From a virus: a stretch of DNA of 21,488 bases. Below are positions 4,353 through 14,345 of this stretch, piece after piece. A program made the translations under genes and the position numbers. The notes beneath the pieces were generated by a model. The model worked only from the letters and a program-made list of their open reading frames with translations. It was not told the origin of the DNA and did not search any database. Numbering within the stretch: position 1 is the first letter of the stretch; the number at the start of each line of letters is the position of its first letter. The DNA lies in IMG/VR virus record IMGVR_UViG_3300027659_000247, positions 1-21,488 of that record; one strand, written 5' to 3'.

Positions 4353-4967
4353 TTACCCTTTTGCTTTTTTAAGTGCTGAACGCACAGTGGATGACATTTG
4401 GTTAGCCAACCAGACACGCTGATCAGCTTCCAATGCCTGTTCATCAATCATTGCAAGGGACTCTGCTGCCTTCCCCTGGTTGACCAATTCTTCTACGCTA
4501 CTTGCCAAATCACGCAAGAAACTCTTAATGTCCTCAGGAAGGTCGTCACCAATGCCACCACGAGGGGTTACAACAGGTGCTGTACCCTTGACCCCAGTAG
4601 TTGCATCCAACGCATCGTGTTCAACGATTTCAAGCGCTGCAACCCACAAATAGCGTCTAAGGTAGGTCTGTACTGCCCCAAGGTTTTGGACCTCGTGACA
4701 GCCCTTTAAAGCTGCGCTAGACATGGGTGTTTCAATGACGATCATCTCTTCTGGCTTATCGTTGTTGACAATCCGCATGTCTGCTGTTTCTTTGCCAAAG
4801 CTGATGATGGCTGTCAATCCAACCTCATCCAAAATTCTTAAGGCTGGAATGATGAAGTCACCAAGCTCAAAGTATTTGTAGCCAGCAAACTTGTTGTGGC
4901 CTGACTTTTTCAATTCAATACTGTGAAACTTATGACGAGCATCATTAAGTTTTTTATAGACGTTCAT
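4353..4967 (-). CDS. ERF-family single-strand annealing protein
   Basis: This 204-aa protein is predicted to anneal complementary single strands in phage recombination or genome circularisation. The ERF pattern is clear: an N-terminal helix (MNVYKKLNDARHKFHSIELK), a lysine-rich KFAGYKYFELGDF, and the signature GAVQTYLRRYLWVAALEI near residues 90-110. A low-complexity linker (TGVKGTAPVV) leads to a helical C-terminal part. The ATG at 4967 is chosen because the ERF fold begins there and GGAAAG precedes it. The open frame extends 39 codons further upstream, but that stretch overlaps the next gene and looks non-coding. The SSB-like partner follows downstream. Confidence 0.85.
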   Translation of the reverse strand: MNVYKKLNDARHKFHSIELKKSGHNKFAGYKYFELGDFIIPALRILDEVGLTAIISFGKETADMRIVNNDKPEEMIVIETPMSSAALKGCHEVQNLGAVQTYLRRYLWVAALEIVEHDALDATTGVKGTAPVVTPRGGIGDDLPEDIKSFLRDLASSVEELVNQGKAAESLAMIDEQALEADQRVWLANQMSSTVRSALKKAKG

Positions 4968-4971
4968 TGCA

Positions 4972-5208
4972 TTACTTTCCAAATGTTGCATCGTATTCAT
5001 CTTGGATGATGTCTTTTTGAGTGTCATCATCAAAGTCTTCAAAGTTGATGAAGTGGTTTTCCTCGCAGCATGAGCGCTTGTCATTGCGAGGCTCTAAGCA
5101 GTAAGGGCAGTACTCCACACCCCTGAGATCTTCTTTCGCTTGTTCTAAAAAGTCTTTCATGTGTTCCTCTTGACGTTGGACTGTTTCATAAAATTCTTGT
5201 TGGCTCAT
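4972..5208 (-). CDS. Small acidic protein with a possible zinc-binding Cys cluster
   Basis: This 78-aa product starts MSQQEFYETVQRQEEH, a charged helix. It then has YCPYCLEPRNDKRSCCEE, a CxxC pair followed ten residues later by CC, which could hold one zinc ion. It ends in a very acidic segment (FEDFDDDTQKDI). The ATG at 5208 overlaps the upstream stop as ATGA and follows GGAAAAG. The longer frame upstream is a shadow of the neighbouring gene. It lies 4 bases before the ERF gene. I do not recognise the family; a protein-protein adaptor or DNA mimic is possible but unsupported. Confidence 0.6.
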   Translation of the reverse strand: MSQQEFYETVQRQEEHMKDFLEQAKEDLRGVEYCPYCLEPRNDKRSCCEENHFINFEDFDDDTQKDIIQDEYDATFGK

Positions 5209-9106: not shown

Positions 9107-9195
9107 ATGATTGCAAACACATGTGGGAGCCCATAGAGGGCCAAGGTATGTACAAATGCATTAGATGCAATGCTTTTCGGAGAATTATTAAATGA
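9103..9195 (+). CDS. 30-aa zinc-ribbon microprotein
   Basis: The product contains MNDCKHMWEPIEGQGMYKC and then IRCNAFRRIIK. The C-x-H ... C-x2-C arrangement is a complete four-ligand zinc site in a protein of only 30 residues. I recall similar small proteins (C-x-H-x-W ... GMYKC-x2-C) in many phages. ATGA overlaps on both sides show that it is read as part of the operon. Binding to DNA, RNA or a partner protein is likely, but no target is known. Confidence 0.65.
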   Translation: MNDCKHMWEPIEGQGMYKCIRCNAFRRIIK

Positions 9196-9416
9196 GCAAG
9201 AAAAACACAGGTGGGCCAGCGTTTCCAAACGCAAGCATCAAAACTAAAGAAGGCATTGATGTCTGGGGTGAAGGCGGCATGACCCTGCGAGACTACTTTG
9301 CAGCTAGAGCTATGGCGGCAGACATGACTGATGGCATACATGAGAATGATTTTGCTTGGGCTGCTGCACGGGCTTACAAGGTGGCAGACGCCATGTTGAA
9401 AGCGAGGGAAGCATGA
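9192..9416 (+). CDS. Phage protein of the GGPAFP / GMTLRDYFAA type
   Basis: The 74-aa product starts MSKKNTGGPAFPNASIKTKE. It has GMTLRDYFAARAMAADM, then an Ala-rich helix ending AYKVADAMLKAREA. This pattern (GGPAFP near the start, GMTLRDYFAA in the middle, ADAML at the end) recurs in many phages and prophages of Gram-negative hosts; the role is unknown. A GGAG lies about 9 bases before the ATG, which overlaps the previous stop as ATGA. Confidence 0.8.
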   Translation: MSKKNTGGPAFPNASIKTKEGIDVWGEGGMTLRDYFAARAMAADMTDGIHENDFAWAAARAYKVADAMLKAREA

Positions 9417-9520
9417 ACAAAGACGAAGAACCCACCCCGGCGGACGACCAGCTTTTGTGGATCGTGCTGGCATTTATTGCATTTATGTTGACACTGATGA
9501 CTTTACGGAGTTGTTTATGA
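9413..9520 (+). CDS. 35-aa single-pass membrane microprotein
   Basis: The product starts with an acidic tail (MNKDEEPTPADDQ), followed by one transmembrane helix (LLWIVLAFIAFMLTLMTL). ATGA overlaps couple it to the gene before and to the RusA gene after, and AGGGA precedes the start. An acidic N-terminus on a tiny membrane protein in the replication block is unusual. A role at the host membrane is possible, for example in superinfection control. This is inference. Confidence 0.6.
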   Translation: MNKDEEPTPADDQLLWIVLAFIAFMLTLMTLRSCL

Positions 9521-9945
9521 CCTTTCAGGTTATCTTTCAAGTTGAAGGAACCCCAGTGCCTAAGGGTCGCCCAAGGTTTGCCAGGAAAGGCAAGTTTGTC
9601 TCAACTTACAGTCCAAAAACCACAGTTGACTATGAAATTAAGGTTGCTGACGCTGCCATGACGGCAATGGGCTCACAGAAGCCCCTAGAAGGCCCCATAG
9701 TGGCATGTATTTACATCACCCTACCCATCCCAGCCTCCTACACAAAAAAGCGCTTTAAAGCCTGTTTATCAGGTGAGGAGCGTCCAATCAAACGCAGTGA
9801 CATCGACAACTTCTGCAAAGCAATTTTTGACGGTATGAACGGGATTGTCTTTGAGGATGATAGTCAGGTGGTGTCACTTCACGCCACCAAGGTGTATGGA
9901 ACTGTAGGGATGGTGGAAATCATGGTCCAAGAACATCTCTTATAG
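9517..9945 (+). CDS. rusA: RusA-type Holliday junction resolvase
   Basis: The 142-aa enzyme is predicted to cut four-way DNA junctions in phage recombination and before packaging. The family pattern is clear: GTPVPKGRPRFARKGK near the start, then RSDIDNFCKAIFDGMNGIVFEDDSQV. Asp95, Asp97, Lys101 and Asp114/115 match in spacing the catalytic residues of E. coli RusA (Asp70, Asp72, Lys76, Asp91), as I recall them. The ATG at 9517 is chosen because it overlaps the previous stop as ATGA and has GGAG 6 bases upstream. An earlier ATG at 9457 lies inside the previous gene. Confidence 0.92.
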   Translation: MTFQVIFQVEGTPVPKGRPRFARKGKFVSTYSPKTTVDYEIKVADAAMTAMGSQKPLEGPIVACIYITLPIPASYTKKRFKACLSGEERPIKRSDIDNFCKAIFDGMNGIVFEDDSQVVSLHATKVYGTVGMVEIMVQEHLL

Positions 9946-10215: not shown

Positions 10216-10688
10216 GAAAAAAGAGCAAATATAAACCCAAGGGAGTACGGCTAGATGCTGTTAACTGGGTATTAGCTGGCATGAGAAAGGTAGGAACACT
10301 ACCTACTGCTGGTGTTGGCTTAAAGCTAAAAAACCATGAAGCCTTGGATTCCATCATAAAAGGTGAAGGAACAAAGGAACATGTTGATGTGCTGATCCAT
10401 GCTGTGAACATGGCAGAAGCTTTAATCCGCATTCGGGATGACTTGGGTGCTGATTGGGCAATAGAGATCAAAGCTGCTCAAGATGCTATCTACACAATGG
10501 GTAAACGTGGTGTTGAGAAGGGCAGATTTGCCTTTACAGGACCAGAGATGACTGCTGTCAGGGTGGTGATGGATGTCCATGATGCCCAGCTAGACGACTG
10601 TTCTGTAAAGGAAATGGAACAGGCTTTGTACATTGTTTCTGAAGAGATCCGGCTAAAGAAGTGCCGAGCCATTATGGAGCCAGCATGA
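10212..10688 (+). CDS. Conserved-looking phage protein starting MRKKSKYKPKGVR
   Basis: The 158-aa, mostly helical product opens with a basic arm (MRKKSKYKPKGVRLDAVNWV). It contains KNHEALDSIIKGEGTKEHVD, then HAVNMAEALIRI and GRFAFTGPEMTAVRVVMDVH. HDAQLDDCSVKEMEQAL lies near the end. I recall homologues in phages of Burkholderiales and related hosts, always without a function. It is coupled by ATGA overlap at both ends in the replication block. A DNA-linked regulatory role is possible, but nothing in the sequence proves it. Confidence 0.72.
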   Translation: MRKKSKYKPKGVRLDAVNWVLAGMRKVGTLPTAGVGLKLKNHEALDSIIKGEGTKEHVDVLIHAVNMAEALIRIRDDLGADWAIEIKAAQDAIYTMGKRGVEKGRFAFTGPEMTAVRVVMDVHDAQLDDCSVKEMEQALYIVSEEIRLKKCRAIMEPA

Positions 10689-10960
10689 TGGAAGACCCGT
10701 ACCACTACGAGAAGCCTGAATGGTTGGTGCTCAAACAAAGAGAACACAACCGTAAGTTAAGAGAGAAGCGACTAGGTAGGCCAATAGGAACCTGGGGTGG
10801 TAAACGTCAGGGTGCAGGTATCAAGAAAAAGACAGAAGAGCCCAAGTACACCAACTTAGTCGCATTAACTCTAAACAGTATCCAAAAACAAGTACTCATA
10901 GAAATGGGTAATGGTGATCTGGATACTGGTGTACAGAACTTAATCAATCAACACATTTGA
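10685..10960 (+). CDS. Small basic protein, possible ribbon-helix-helix-like DNA binder
   Basis: The 91-aa protein has a charged start (DPYHYEKPEWLVLKQREH), a Gly/Arg/Lys centre (RPIGTWGGKRQGAGIKKK), and a C-terminal unit NLVALTLNSIQKQVLIEMGN followed by GVQNLINQHI. A short strand followed by two helices after a GGKR-x-GAG linker is how several phage proteins with ribbon-helix-helix-like ends look. The ATG at 10685 overlaps the previous stop and follows GGAG; an earlier GTG at 10661 is rejected. Next is the alpha-CTD-like gene, so a transcription-related pair is possible. This is inference. Confidence 0.6.
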   Translation: MMEDPYHYEKPEWLVLKQREHNRKLREKRLGRPIGTWGGKRQGAGIKKKTEEPKYTNLVALTLNSIQKQVLIEMGNGDLDTGVQNLINQHI

Positions 10961-10969
10961 AAGCAAAGC

Positions 10970-11356
10970 ATGACTAAAACAGAAATCCTTGACCACTTTG
11001 CCTTGTACGCAATGCAAGCGCAAATTGAAAAAATGGGAATCACAAACCCGTTTGCTATGGCTCAGACATCGTATCGATTGGCAGTAGAAATGTTGGAGCA
11101 CCGTGATCGCATCTTGCGAGAGTGGCAAAGGGATCAAGAGATGCAACATAAGCAAATTAACTCTGATATCAAAGAACTTGATTTGCCAATCAGATATCAC
11201 CGATGTTTGGTTTCCGAGCAAATCTTGATGAAGCAAGACCTTTGCAATTGGACAGAGCGTGAGATGAGAAGAATCCCAAATCTAGGGGCTAAGGGATTGC
11301 AGTTTGTTAAAGAAGCAATGGCTTTGCATGGATTGAAATTTAAGGGGCAAGAATGA
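10970..11356 (+). CDS. Protein with an RNA polymerase alpha C-terminal-domain-like module
   Basis: In this 128-aa protein, residues 1-67 are helical and unrecognised. Residues 68-124 align without gaps to the E. coli alpha C-terminal domain as I remember it, with about 22 identities in 57. ELDLPIRYHRCLVSEQI matches the helix with Arg265 and Cys269 (here Arg75, Cys79). RIPNLGAKGLQFVKE matches the loop with Asn294, Gly296 and Lys298 (here Asn104, Gly106, Lys108). Asn268 becomes Arg, Ser299 becomes Gly and Glu302 becomes Phe. The domain binds UP-element DNA and activators, so this protein may bind promoters or compete with host polymerase. The alpha assembly domain is absent. A different helix-hairpin-helix protein is the main alternative. 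Confidence 0.78.
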   Translation: MTKTEILDHFALYAMQAQIEKMGITNPFAMAQTSYRLAVEMLEHRDRILREWQRDQEMQHKQINSDIKELDLPIRYHRCLVSEQILMKQDLCNWTEREMRRIPNLGAKGLQFVKEAMALHGLKFKGQE

Positions 11357-11823
11357 TAGTTTGTCCATTAACTCTTGCAGATGCAAATGCTTTTGTTACT
11401 CTGCATCACCGTCACAACAAAAAAGTTCAAGGTCATAAATTTAGTATTGGCGCAACAGAAAACAATAATCTTGTTGGTGTAGCAATAATTGGACGGCCTG
11501 TATCAAGACATTTAGATGATGGCTTAACAATGGAGGTGACAAGACTGACTGTGCTTGATGATGCTCCTAAAAATACTTGTTCTTTTCTTTATCGTTGTGC
11601 TTGGCGTATTTGGTCTTCAATGGGTGGACAAAGAATAATCACTTACACAACAGAATCAGAAACAGGCGCATCACTCAAAGGTGCAGGTTTTAAAGTTGTT
11701 GCGAAATCACCTTCATGGAAAGAGGGAACTGGATGGACGACTAGGAGCAATCGAGTTTGGCAACCCGTGCATTCAGAAGGAAAAGTTCGTTGGCAAATTG
11801 ATAAAGGACAAAGCAATGATTGA
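11353..11823 (+). CDS. XF1762-family, GNAT-like protein
   Basis: The 156-aa product has the XF1762 pattern: LTLADANAFVTLHHRHNKKV, GHKFSIGATENNNLVGVAII, GRPVSRHLDDGLTMEVTRL, CSFLYRCAWRIWSSMG, then TYTTESETGASLKGAGFKVV. Fold and strand order resemble GNAT acetyltransferases, although the acetyl-CoA loop is not standard. The family is common in phages; its substrate is unknown. AGGGG precedes the ATG, which overlaps the stop of the alpha-CTD-like gene as ATGA. That coupling raises the possibility that the pair acts together on host proteins, but this is only a suggestion. Confidence 0.82.
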   Translation: MIVCPLTLADANAFVTLHHRHNKKVQGHKFSIGATENNNLVGVAIIGRPVSRHLDDGLTMEVTRLTVLDDAPKNTCSFLYRCAWRIWSSMGGQRIITYTTESETGASLKGAGFKVVAKSPSWKEGTGWTTRSNRVWQPVHSEGKVRWQIDKGQSND

Positions 11824-11983
11824 ACAAAAAAAAGATGCTATTGGAAACCCACCGTACTGGGTTTGCACAAAATGCAACTGGGCTTTCCATGTGTTGCAGG
11901 AAGCCAACAGACATCAGTGCGGGATAACAAACAAAACAACTCCAACCTATGTGAGTTATTCAAGGAAAAGCAATGGAAATTAA
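11816..11983 (+). CDS. 55-aa zinc-finger protein
   Basis: The product contains YWVCTKCNWAFHVLQEANRH followed by QCG. C-x2-C then, after 15 residues, H-x-C is a C2HC-type zinc finger with a Trp/Phe core. AAGGA lies about 8 bases before the ATG, and the gene overlaps its neighbours by 8 and 11 bases. The remaining tail is Thr/Ser/Lys-rich and looks disordered. DNA or RNA binding is likely from the finger type; the target is unknown. Confidence 0.6.
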   Translation: MIEQKKDAIGNPPYWVCTKCNWAFHVLQEANRHQCGITNKTTPTYVSYSRKSNGN

Positions 11984-12299: not shown

Positions 12300-12562
12300 A
12301 CAATAAGATCAGCGCCAAAGAGAGACTACATTTAGCCAGGGTTAAGGAGCTACCCTGTTCAGTCTGTGATGCTCCTGGGCCAAGTGATGCACACCATGTA
12401 AAACAGGGTTTGCAGTACACTTGCGTAGCATTGTGCAAAGATTGTCATCAAGGTAGTTTTCTTGGTTGGCATGGACAAAAAAGAGCATGGTCTATCCGTA
12501 AAATGGATGAAATCGATGCCTTGAACAAAACCATTGAAAGGTTAGTCAATGAACTACGGTGA
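12296..12562 (+). CDS. HNH-like, Ref-type zinc nuclease candidate
   Basis: The 88-aa protein has LPCSVCDAPGPSDAHHVKQG with Cys21, Cys24 and the His33-His34 pair. VALCKDCHQGSFLGWHGQKR follows with Cys47, Cys50, His51 and His59. Two CxxC pairs around an HH motif match small HNH/Ref-like phage nucleases, in which cysteines hold structural zinc and histidines bind the catalytic metal. A C-terminal helix (IDALNKTIERLVNELR) may mediate dimerisation. Cutting during recombination or recycling of host DNA would suit the ERF and RusA set. Activity is inferred. Confidence 0.72.
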   Translation: MNNKISAKERLHLARVKELPCSVCDAPGPSDAHHVKQGLQYTCVALCKDCHQGSFLGWHGQKRAWSIRKMDEIDALNKTIERLVNELR

Positions 12563-12905
12563 ATTCCTGTTGACCTTGATGCACTCGTCAACCAACACAC
12601 AGATCCTGCATCGCCAAACAAAAAGCTACGCAGAACACATCGCTTTGGGTGAGTTCTATGAAGCCATCATTCCCCTGGTAGACACTCTTACAGAGGCTAT
12701 TCAGGGCTTAGAGGGTGAAATCATTGAGTACCCTGTGGACTACTATGGTCCAGCATCCAGTGGCCTTGAAGAGCTTTCCTCGTTGAAAGATTACGTTACT
12801 GAAGAGCGCAACAGTTTGCCAGCTAACAGTGAGATACAAAATATTGTTGACGAGATTGCTGATTTGATTAACAGTACGCTGTACAAGCTTAAATTCCTGA
12901 AGTGA
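12549..12905 (+). CDS. DUF5856-like helical protein
   Basis: The 118-aa product starts MNYGEFLLTLMHSSTNTQIL and HRQTKSYAEHIALGEFYEAI, then IPLVDTLTEAIQGLEGEII. It ends in a helical region with NIVDEIADLINSTLYKLKFL. This H-x2-TKS-x3-H-x-AL-x3-Y pattern is typical of DUF5856, a Dps/ferritin-like helical family found in T4-like and other phages. The histidines and glutamates could bind metal; no function is established that I know of. It is the last gene of the long rightward block, followed 20 bases later by a terminator. Confidence 0.8.
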   Translation: MNYGEFLLTLMHSSTNTQILHRQTKSYAEHIALGEFYEAIIPLVDTLTEAIQGLEGEIIEYPVDYYGPASSGLEELSSLKDYVTEERNSLPANSEIQNIVDEIADLINSTLYKLKFLK

Positions 12906-13386: not shown

Positions 13387-13566
13387 TCAGTTTAGGTTAA
13401 CCAAAACCCAAAAATCTGATGGTTTGCATGCTCTCCAGCGTTTAGGGTTGTCAGCATGGATAACGATTAAATTTAGCTCACACACCCTTTGGACAACCCA
13501 AAAAGAACCATCATCTAAATAGGTGATAGAACCAAAATCCCCAGGTTTAATTTTAGTTTTATGCAT
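13387..13566 (-). CDS. 59-aa phage protein, function unknown
   Basis: AGGGG lies 6 bases before the ATG at 13566, which overlaps the end of the GP88 gene by 8 bases. The product starts MHKTKIKPGDFGSITYLDDG and has FWVVQRVCELNLIVIHADNP, then KRWRACKPSDFWVLVNLN. It looks like a small beta-barrel (several strands, three Trp residues), similar in feel to SH3- or Tudor-like domains. I know no family. The tight coupling to GP88 suggests a partner. It is the last gene before the leftward terminator. Confidence 0.68.
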   Translation of the reverse strand: MHKTKIKPGDFGSITYLDDGSFWVVQRVCELNLIVIHADNPKRWRACKPSDFWVLVNLN

Positions 13567-14317
13567 AGTGAACCCCTAAAATTTGAGTAAAGCCTGATGT
13601 GTCTTTTTTGGCTTTGCCTTTAGCGTACAAAGCCACCACTACATTTTTGGGTTCTATGTGTCGCACATCGGTGTTATCACCATCGATCACATCCCAGCCC
13701 CTAAAGCTTGCAGGGATATCGGCTTGTTTTTGGAAAACGACAGCCACCCTGGAATTGTTTGGATTCTGTAAACCCTTGATGGTGATAGGTTTCGGGGTGA
13801 TAGCGCTAAACGAATAGGTCAAATCATAATTCCCTGATGTTTTGCCTGTCAGGTTTCTTGCTGGGTGTTTTGTATAGTCGTAAAACTGCACATCAGGGAA
13901 TAATTGAAACAGGTTTTTGTTGTCCCATATGATTAGGTTTTCATAAGGGATGTCTGATGTGCCATTCGGGCGAACCAAAGGGATAAAACCCTGTTTTTTA
14001 GCTTTGTTTTGTAGTGTCCAAACATCAGCAGCAAACGACAACAAAAAAGCTTGCTGATTGTCATAAAAGAATCGGGTTTTGCTGATTCTTGCTTGCTGTA
14101 CAGAATTAAAAGCACCTCTACCCGCTGATTCCAAACAGCCAAACATGCACCCTGCTGTTTTTGCCATTGAACAGATTTTGTGATCAGGTTTTAGGTAAAC
14201 AATACCCGTCAAGTAACCGATGGATTCGCCCTTGACAGTTTTTGCCGATGATTCGCCTAGGATTGTCTTGTAGGGCAAACCTAGGGTTTTGAGAATGGTT
14301 TTGTAGGGGTTTTTCAT
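13559..14317 (-). CDS. GP88-family phage protein (gene product 88)
   Basis: The 252-aa protein matches the GP88 family known from mycobacteriophages and many other phages. It has TGIVYLKPDHKICSMAKTAG, then CMFGCLESAGRGAFN, VQQARISKTRFFYDNQQAFL, later LFPDVQFYDYTKHPAR and YDLTYSFSA. The core cysteines (Cys49, Cys57, Cys61; C-x7-C-x3-C) suggest a metal or iron-sulfur site, though the spacing differs from the radical SAM CxxxCxxC. The biochemical role is unknown to me. The ATG at 14317 is preferred; an ATG at 14326 and a TTG at 14332 are alternatives. It heads into the 59-aa gene by overlap. Confidence 0.85.
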   Translation of the reverse strand: MKNPYKTILKTLGLPYKTILGESSAKTVKGESIGYLTGIVYLKPDHKICSMAKTAGCMFGCLESAGRGAFNSVQQARISKTRFFYDNQQAFLLSFAADVWTLQNKAKKQGFIPLVRPNGTSDIPYENLIIWDNKNLFQLFPDVQFYDYTKHPARNLTGKTSGNYDLTYSFSAITPKPITIKGLQNPNNSRVAVVFQKQADIPASFRGWDVIDGDNTDVRHIEPKNVVVALYAKGKAKKDTSGFTQILGVHYA

Positions 14318-14345
14318 GATATGCATTTCCAATGTGATTTGATGG

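What the first reader, a model, noticed from the sequence alone, without database searches (positions are those of the whole stretch)
10970..11356. Phage protein with an RNA polymerase alpha C-terminal-domain fold fused to an unknown helical domain
Residues 68-124 align without gaps to the E. coli alpha C-terminal domain as I recall it, about 22 of 57 identical. The UP-element arginine (Arg75 = Arg265), Cys79, and the PNLG-x-K loop with Asn104, Gly106 and Lys108 are kept. Three other contact positions are changed (N268R, S299G, E302F). There is no assembly domain, so the protein cannot replace alpha. It could bind UP-like DNA, act as a decoy for activators or sigma region 4, or steer host polymerase to phage promoters through its N-terminal half. 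It is tightly coupled to a GNAT-like XF1762 gene.
Basis: partly seen in the sequence, partly recalled or inferred. Interest (0 to 1): 0.85.

Follow-up and report, generated by a model that had tools for sequence, protein, structure and literature searches.

The report
Phage hairpin fused to polymerase alpha domain
A small aquatic-phage protein joins a common phage helical module to a DNA-binding domain derived from the host RNA polymerase alpha subunit, and its relatives mostly sit inside phage DNA-recombination operons, so it is probably a DNA-binding helper protein rather than part of a polymerase.

Summary
The 128-residue ORF at 10970-11356 carries a real RNA polymerase alpha C-terminal domain (PF03118, E=1.5e-12). 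Alignment to E. coli gives 22/56 identities, and the top structure matches are alpha subunits. The reading needs correcting in two places. First, the "unknown helical domain" is the widespread phage "DYFAxxAM" helical hairpin, which the same genome also carries alone at 9192-9416 (profile-profile E=3.4e-9, plus intermediates). The protein is therefore a phage module fused to a captured alphaCTD. A sister subfamily (L221) has an alphaCTD 34/58 identical to E. coli that still keeps S299 and E302. Second, the Mom-like neighbour is not a conserved partner (4 of 57 loci). In 32 of 57 loci the gene adjoins a recombination gene, and in 26 of these it lies between a single-strand annealing protein (Erf or Sak) and a YqaJ exonuclease. 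The DNA-binding residues R265, N294 and G296 are invariant and K298 is K/R in 36 unique sequences, while the activator surface is altered. Best reading: an early duplex-DNA-binding accessory of phage recombination/replication (about 0.45). Transcription modulation remains open. A homologue is already in UniProt under an automatic name, and I found no study of one.

The parts
10970..11356 (+). ORF of 128 aa: DYFAA-type helical hairpin (about residues 5-47), continuous long helix to about residue 63, then RpoA-type alphaCTD (about residues 66-124)
10982..11110 (+). N-terminal helical hairpin (residues 5-47), homologous to the DYFAxxAM phage family
   Evidence: hhalign probability 96.1, E=3.4e-9; reciprocal HMM hits; two helices predicted in both
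11135..11320 (+). RNA_pol_A_CTD domain (PF03118), residues 56-117
   Evidence: E=1.5e-12; 48.4 bits
9192..9416 (+). Stand-alone DYFAxxAM hairpin protein, homologue of the N-terminal half
   Evidence: phrog_2201 E=7e-20, phrog_37111, phrog_30599; model with two helices at 32-46 and 54-73
11353..11823 (+). Mom-like DNA-modification gene, ATGA overlap; accessory neighbour, present in only 4 of 57 loci
   Evidence: phrog_1384 E=4.6e-37; PF25680 Mom 27.4 bits
11816..11983 (+). Small C-x2-C...H-x-C (probable zinc-binding) protein; in 15 loci its homologue lies directly beside the alphaCTD gene without Mom between
   Evidence: sequence reading
9457..9945 (+). RusA Holliday-junction resolvase of the same operon
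   Evidence: PF05866 E=2.7e-32
10661..10960 (+). Upstream gene of unknown function, ends 9 nt before the alphaCTD start

Best explanation
It is a small early phage DNA-binding protein made by fusing a phage-specific helical hairpin (DYFAxxAM family) to an alphaCTD captured from a proteobacterial RpoA. The alphaCTD binds double-stranded DNA through its helix-hairpin-helix and R265/N294/G296/K298 surface (inferred from conservation). The hairpin and long helix probably dimerise or dock onto a partner of the phage DNA-metabolism machinery (inferred). It most likely acts as an accessory of phage recombination/replication, for example by holding an annealing protein, exonuclease or resolvase on duplex DNA. 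Shown: both domain identities, homology of the hairpin to stand-alone phage proteins, conservation, and operon position. Inferred: DNA binding, partner docking and the recombination role.
For: alphaCTD identity. N-terminal half equals DYFAxxAM family: a DYFAA-only profile finds 36 alphaCTD-family ORFs at E 2.7e-6 to 0.02 with none in training; the N-terminal profile against 8826 ORFs hits, beyond the family, only DYFAA ORFs, from 2.5e-6; hhalign E=3.4e-9; intermediates L223-L226 'GMTLLDHFAGLAMQA'. Capture: L221 alphaCTD 34/58 identical to E. coli and best matched by gammaproteobacterial RpoA at 2e-14. DNA-contact residues conserved. Operon: 26 of 57 loci have SSAP (Erf PF04404 or Sak PF06378) - alphaCTD - YqaJ (PF09588), 32 of 57 have at least one; DYFAA-alone genes sit between Erf and YqaJ in several loci and apparently in MW202462; window and others next to RusA.
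Against: The alphaCTD gene with the same small partners (CCHC or hth66) occurs in two different early operons, as expected of a mobile cassette with no fixed recombination partner. Loci are related phages, so counts are not independent. In the window itself the Erf gene is elsewhere (4353-5084, minus strand). N268 and S299, DNA-contact positions in E. coli, are changed. There are no interaction or DNA-binding data.
Confidence: 0.45

Rival explanations
1. Transcription modulator: the domain competes with or supplements host alphaCTD at UP elements, or contacts sigma region 4 or activators, shifting host polymerase to phage promoters.
For: The domain is specifically RpoA-derived rather than a generic helix-hairpin-helix. 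The acidic residue equivalent to D259, a sigma-contact position, is E/D in 36/36, and R265 is invariant.
Against: Activator-facing positions are altered (V287 to R/H/K in all 36, R317 to Q in 34), D258 is never acidic and E261 is N in half. Neighbours are DNA-metabolism genes. A syntenic complete phage lacks the gene, so it is not needed for basic transcription.
Confidence: 0.3
2. Generic counter-defence or moron-type DNA-binding protein in early operons, for example masking phage DNA from nucleases; its position beside recombination genes is hitch-hiking.
For: Accessory distribution, exchange of small neighbours (CCHC, hth66, DYFAA, Mom) and presence in two operon contexts.
Against: Strong purifying selection over many aquatic phages and repeated placement between annealing protein and exonuclease with two annealing-protein families.
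Confidence: 0.2

Closest known systems
RNA polymerase alpha subunit C-terminal domain (RpoA, PF03118)
   Same: Sequence, fold, R265, C269, N294, G296, K298
   Different: No alpha NTD; N268 to R, S299 to G, E302 lost in this clade; fused to a phage hairpin
A0A6J5MNY7 'RNA polymerase, alpha subunit, C-terminal' [uncultured Caudovirales phage]
   Same: 58% identity over all 128 columns: same family, already in UniProt
   Different: Automatic name only; I found no study
DYFAxxAM small phage proteins (phrog_2201, phrog_37111, phrog_30599; a relative is Pseudomonas phage D3 orf38)
   Same: The N-terminal helical hairpin; some lie in the same slot between Erf and YqaJ
   Different: They lack the alphaCTD and carry their own N-terminal extension
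Other phage alphaCTD-like proteins (Microbacterium phage Mazun gp26, Rhodococcus phage Finch, Mycobacterium phage Mithril)
   Same: Phage proteins with an alphaCTD-like domain
   Different: Mazun gp26 does not match the hairpin profile; Finch and Mithril are longer and were not examined further

Membership tests
RNA polymerase alpha CTD (PF03118) | Profile match above curated cut-off | tested here: met
   47.5 vs 23.8 bits; 35 of 35 related records also above cut-off
RNA polymerase alpha CTD (PF03118) | DNA-contact determinant R265, N268, C269, N294, G296, K298, S299 | tested here: inconclusive
   R265, C269, N294, G296 invariant and K298 K/R; N268 mostly R and S299 always G. Sister subfamily L221 keeps S299
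Functional RNAP alpha subunit | N-terminal assembly domain | tested here: not met
   Residues 5-47 belong to the DYFAxxAM phage hairpin
DYFAxxAM phage hairpin family | L-x-D-[YH]-F-A-x2-A-M ... A-Y-x2-A-x2-M-x3-R motif (window protein has S for the first A) and helical hairpin | tested here: met
Phage recombination operon accessory | Conserved position between SSAP and exonuclease | tested here: inconclusive
   Met in 26 of 57 loci, not in the window itself
Duplex-DNA-binding protein | Measured DNA binding | not testable with these tools
   Needs gel shift
Transcription modulator | Binding to RNAP, sigma or UP-element DNA | not testable with these tools
   Needs pull-down, gel shift and in vitro transcription

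The most novel reading that the evidence does not exclude
Phages captured a host RNA polymerase alphaCTD and re-used it as the DNA-gripping half of a recombination mediator, encoded between annealing protein and exonuclease, so that a promoter-recognition domain of RNA polymerase now serves DNA recombination or couples it to transcription.
Probability: 0.3. Interest if true: 0.75.

Novelty: new variant of a known kind. Interest (0 to 1): 0.5.

Why it matters
It gives a concrete case of a phage taking a domain of the host transcription machinery and fusing it to a phage-only module, with surviving intermediates (L221-like proteins close to cellular RpoA). It identifies the other half of a protein that databases name only 'RNA polymerase alpha C-terminal', and ties it to phage recombination operons. 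It also links a very common unnamed phage hairpin family to that setting, which makes both testable.

Tried and rejected
Mom partnership: rejected as a family feature (4 of 57 loci). Homologues in bacterial genomes: two scans of one genome each for 84,980 species found none, so no prophage host assignment; the peptide patterns used reach only fairly close relatives. PHROGs give no alphaCTD family for this protein. Many 'phage' records matching bacterial alphaCTD (for example Staphylococcus, Listeria and faecal records, 75-90% identical to B. subtilis) look like host rpoA contamination and were not used as evidence. Literature searches found no study of phage stand-alone alphaCTD proteins (jumbo-phage review PMC7824862 checked). 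PMC7552054 (phage Rac, a GNAT that leads to cleavage of RNAP alpha) is a different protein, and the neighbour here is Mom-like, not shown to be Rac. UP-element-like sequences in phage promoters were not tested. No tree of alphaCTDs was built (about 60 aligned residues).

Full report
What is there. The ORF at 10970-11356 (+) encodes 128 aa and overlaps the next start by ATGA. Residues 56-117 match Pfam RNA_pol_A_CTD at E=1.5e-12, 47.5 bits, cut-off 23.8. PDB sequence matches are RNA polymerase alpha subunits from 1e-8. An AlphaFold2 model (pLDDT 84.8; pTM only 0.54, so the placement of the two halves is not reliable) gives helices 3-22 and 27-63 followed by the alphaCTD helices, and Foldseek returns RNAP alphaCTDs.

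Family. Scans of viral contigs found 56 loci at 56-98% identity (a first scan found 26) and a few more distant ones; two scans of bacterial and archaeal genomes found none. The window is itself a virus record of 21,488 bases. A full-length homologue is already in UniProt, named 'RNA polymerase, alpha subunit, C-terminal' (A0A6J5MNY7, 58% over 128 columns). Among 36 unique sequences R265, C269, N294 and G296 are invariant, K298 is K or R, N268 is mostly R, S299 is always G, and E302 is lost except in one. Positions of the activator surface differ (V287 to R/H/K in all; R317 to Q in 34, by an ungapped extension into the tail), while the acid at D259 is kept. The naming of these positions as DNA, sigma and activator determinants rests on established E. 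coli work known to me, not on a test here. Median dN/dS is 0.09 in the CTD and 0.18 in the N-terminal half.

The N-terminal half. Its motif L-x-D-H-F-A-x2-A-M ... A-Y-R-x-A-x2-M-x3-R matches the common phage 'LRDYFAAKAMQ ... AYKVADAMLKARE' proteins, one of which the window encodes at 9192-9416 (phrog_2201 E=7e-20). A profile trained on those proteins alone finds 36 alphaCTD-family ORFs at 2.7e-6 to 0.02. A profile of the alphaCTD N-termini searched against 8826 ORFs finds, beyond the family, only DYFAA ORFs; that ORF set was enriched in DYFAA proteins by an earlier scan, but held thousands of others. hhalign gives 96.1% and E=3.4e-9. L223-L226 are stand-alone proteins with an intermediate 'GMTLLDHFAGLAMQA' motif. 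The stand-alone protein is also predicted as a two-helix hairpin. So the protein is a fusion of a phage module with an alphaCTD.

Origin of the alphaCTD. L219-L221 have the same architecture (35% identity to the window protein), and the L221 alphaCTD is 34/58 identical to E. coli, keeps S299 and E302, and matches gammaproteobacterial RpoA best at 2e-14. L064 and L217 carry two copies each, and L071/L222 a divergent copy without the hairpin. The simplest reading is capture from a proteobacterial rpoA followed by divergence (inference; the domain is too short for a firm tree and none was built).

Surroundings. Of 57 loci (window included; related phages, so not independent), 26 have an annealing protein directly upstream and a YqaJ exonuclease directly downstream or one small gene away; the annealing protein is Erf (PF04404) in 19 and Sak (PF06378) in 7; 32 have at least one of the two. 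In L058 the order Erf - alphaCTD - YqaJ - small protein runs with short overlaps. DYFAA-alone genes fill the slot between Erf and YqaJ in several loci, and in MW202462 the match falls in the gap between the erf and exonuclease genes. The other context, including the window, is RusA - unknown - alphaCTD - small CCHC protein - unknown - unknown. The Mom-like gene is present in the window, L022, L047 and L076 only, inserted between alphaCTD and CCHC; L028/L029, 98% identical in the alphaCTD protein, lack it. L221 lies in a third early setting with a DNA polymerase-like ORF and an exonuclease. A complete phage with related terminase (80.9% identity), RusA and some flanking genes lacks the alphaCTD gene, so it is accessory.

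How it most likely works. The conserved R265/N294/G296/K298 surface should bind duplex DNA; the hairpin and long helix should dimerise or dock on a partner. Position beside SSAP, exonuclease, resolvase and Zn-finger genes favours a role in phage recombination or replication (0.45). Transcription modulation (0.3) and a generic DNA-masking or counter-defence role (0.2) remain. None of the binding steps is shown.

Novelty. Phage proteins with alphaCTD-like domains are already named in databases. The hairpin assignment, the near-cellular intermediates and the recombination-operon setting were not found described in the papers searched, in a library that lacks most subscription journals.

Noticed in passing
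window 11353-11823: Mom-like DNA-modification gene (phrog_1384 E=4.6e-37), inserted between alphaCTD and CCHC genes in 4 of 57 loci.
   Followed up: partly
window 11816-11983: Small CCHC (probable zinc-binding) protein, directly beside the alphaCTD gene in 15 loci without Mom; a more constant neighbour than Mom.
   Followed up: partly
L064 3405-4299; L217 3001-5793: Two alphaCTD-hairpin paralogues in one phage contig, in L064 separated only by the CCHC gene.
   Followed up: partly
L222 3001-3192 (same contig as L071): alphaCTD-like domain without the R265 equivalent and without the hairpin, followed by a different C-terminal region (QWIGLTEEE...).
   Followed up: no
L052, L060, L072-L074, L079: A 66-67 aa protein with no Pfam match (MAKIQLSQHQAFMLKHFALGWKF...) follows the alphaCTD gene in both operon contexts.
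   Followed up: no
window 13559-14332 (-): Conserved phage protein of unknown function with several cysteines (phrog_1617 E=1.4e-54); a similar ORF lies in L064 5454-6221.
   Followed up: no
window 12549-12905: DUF5856 / phrog_858 protein labelled starvation-inducible transcriptional regulator.
   Followed up: no
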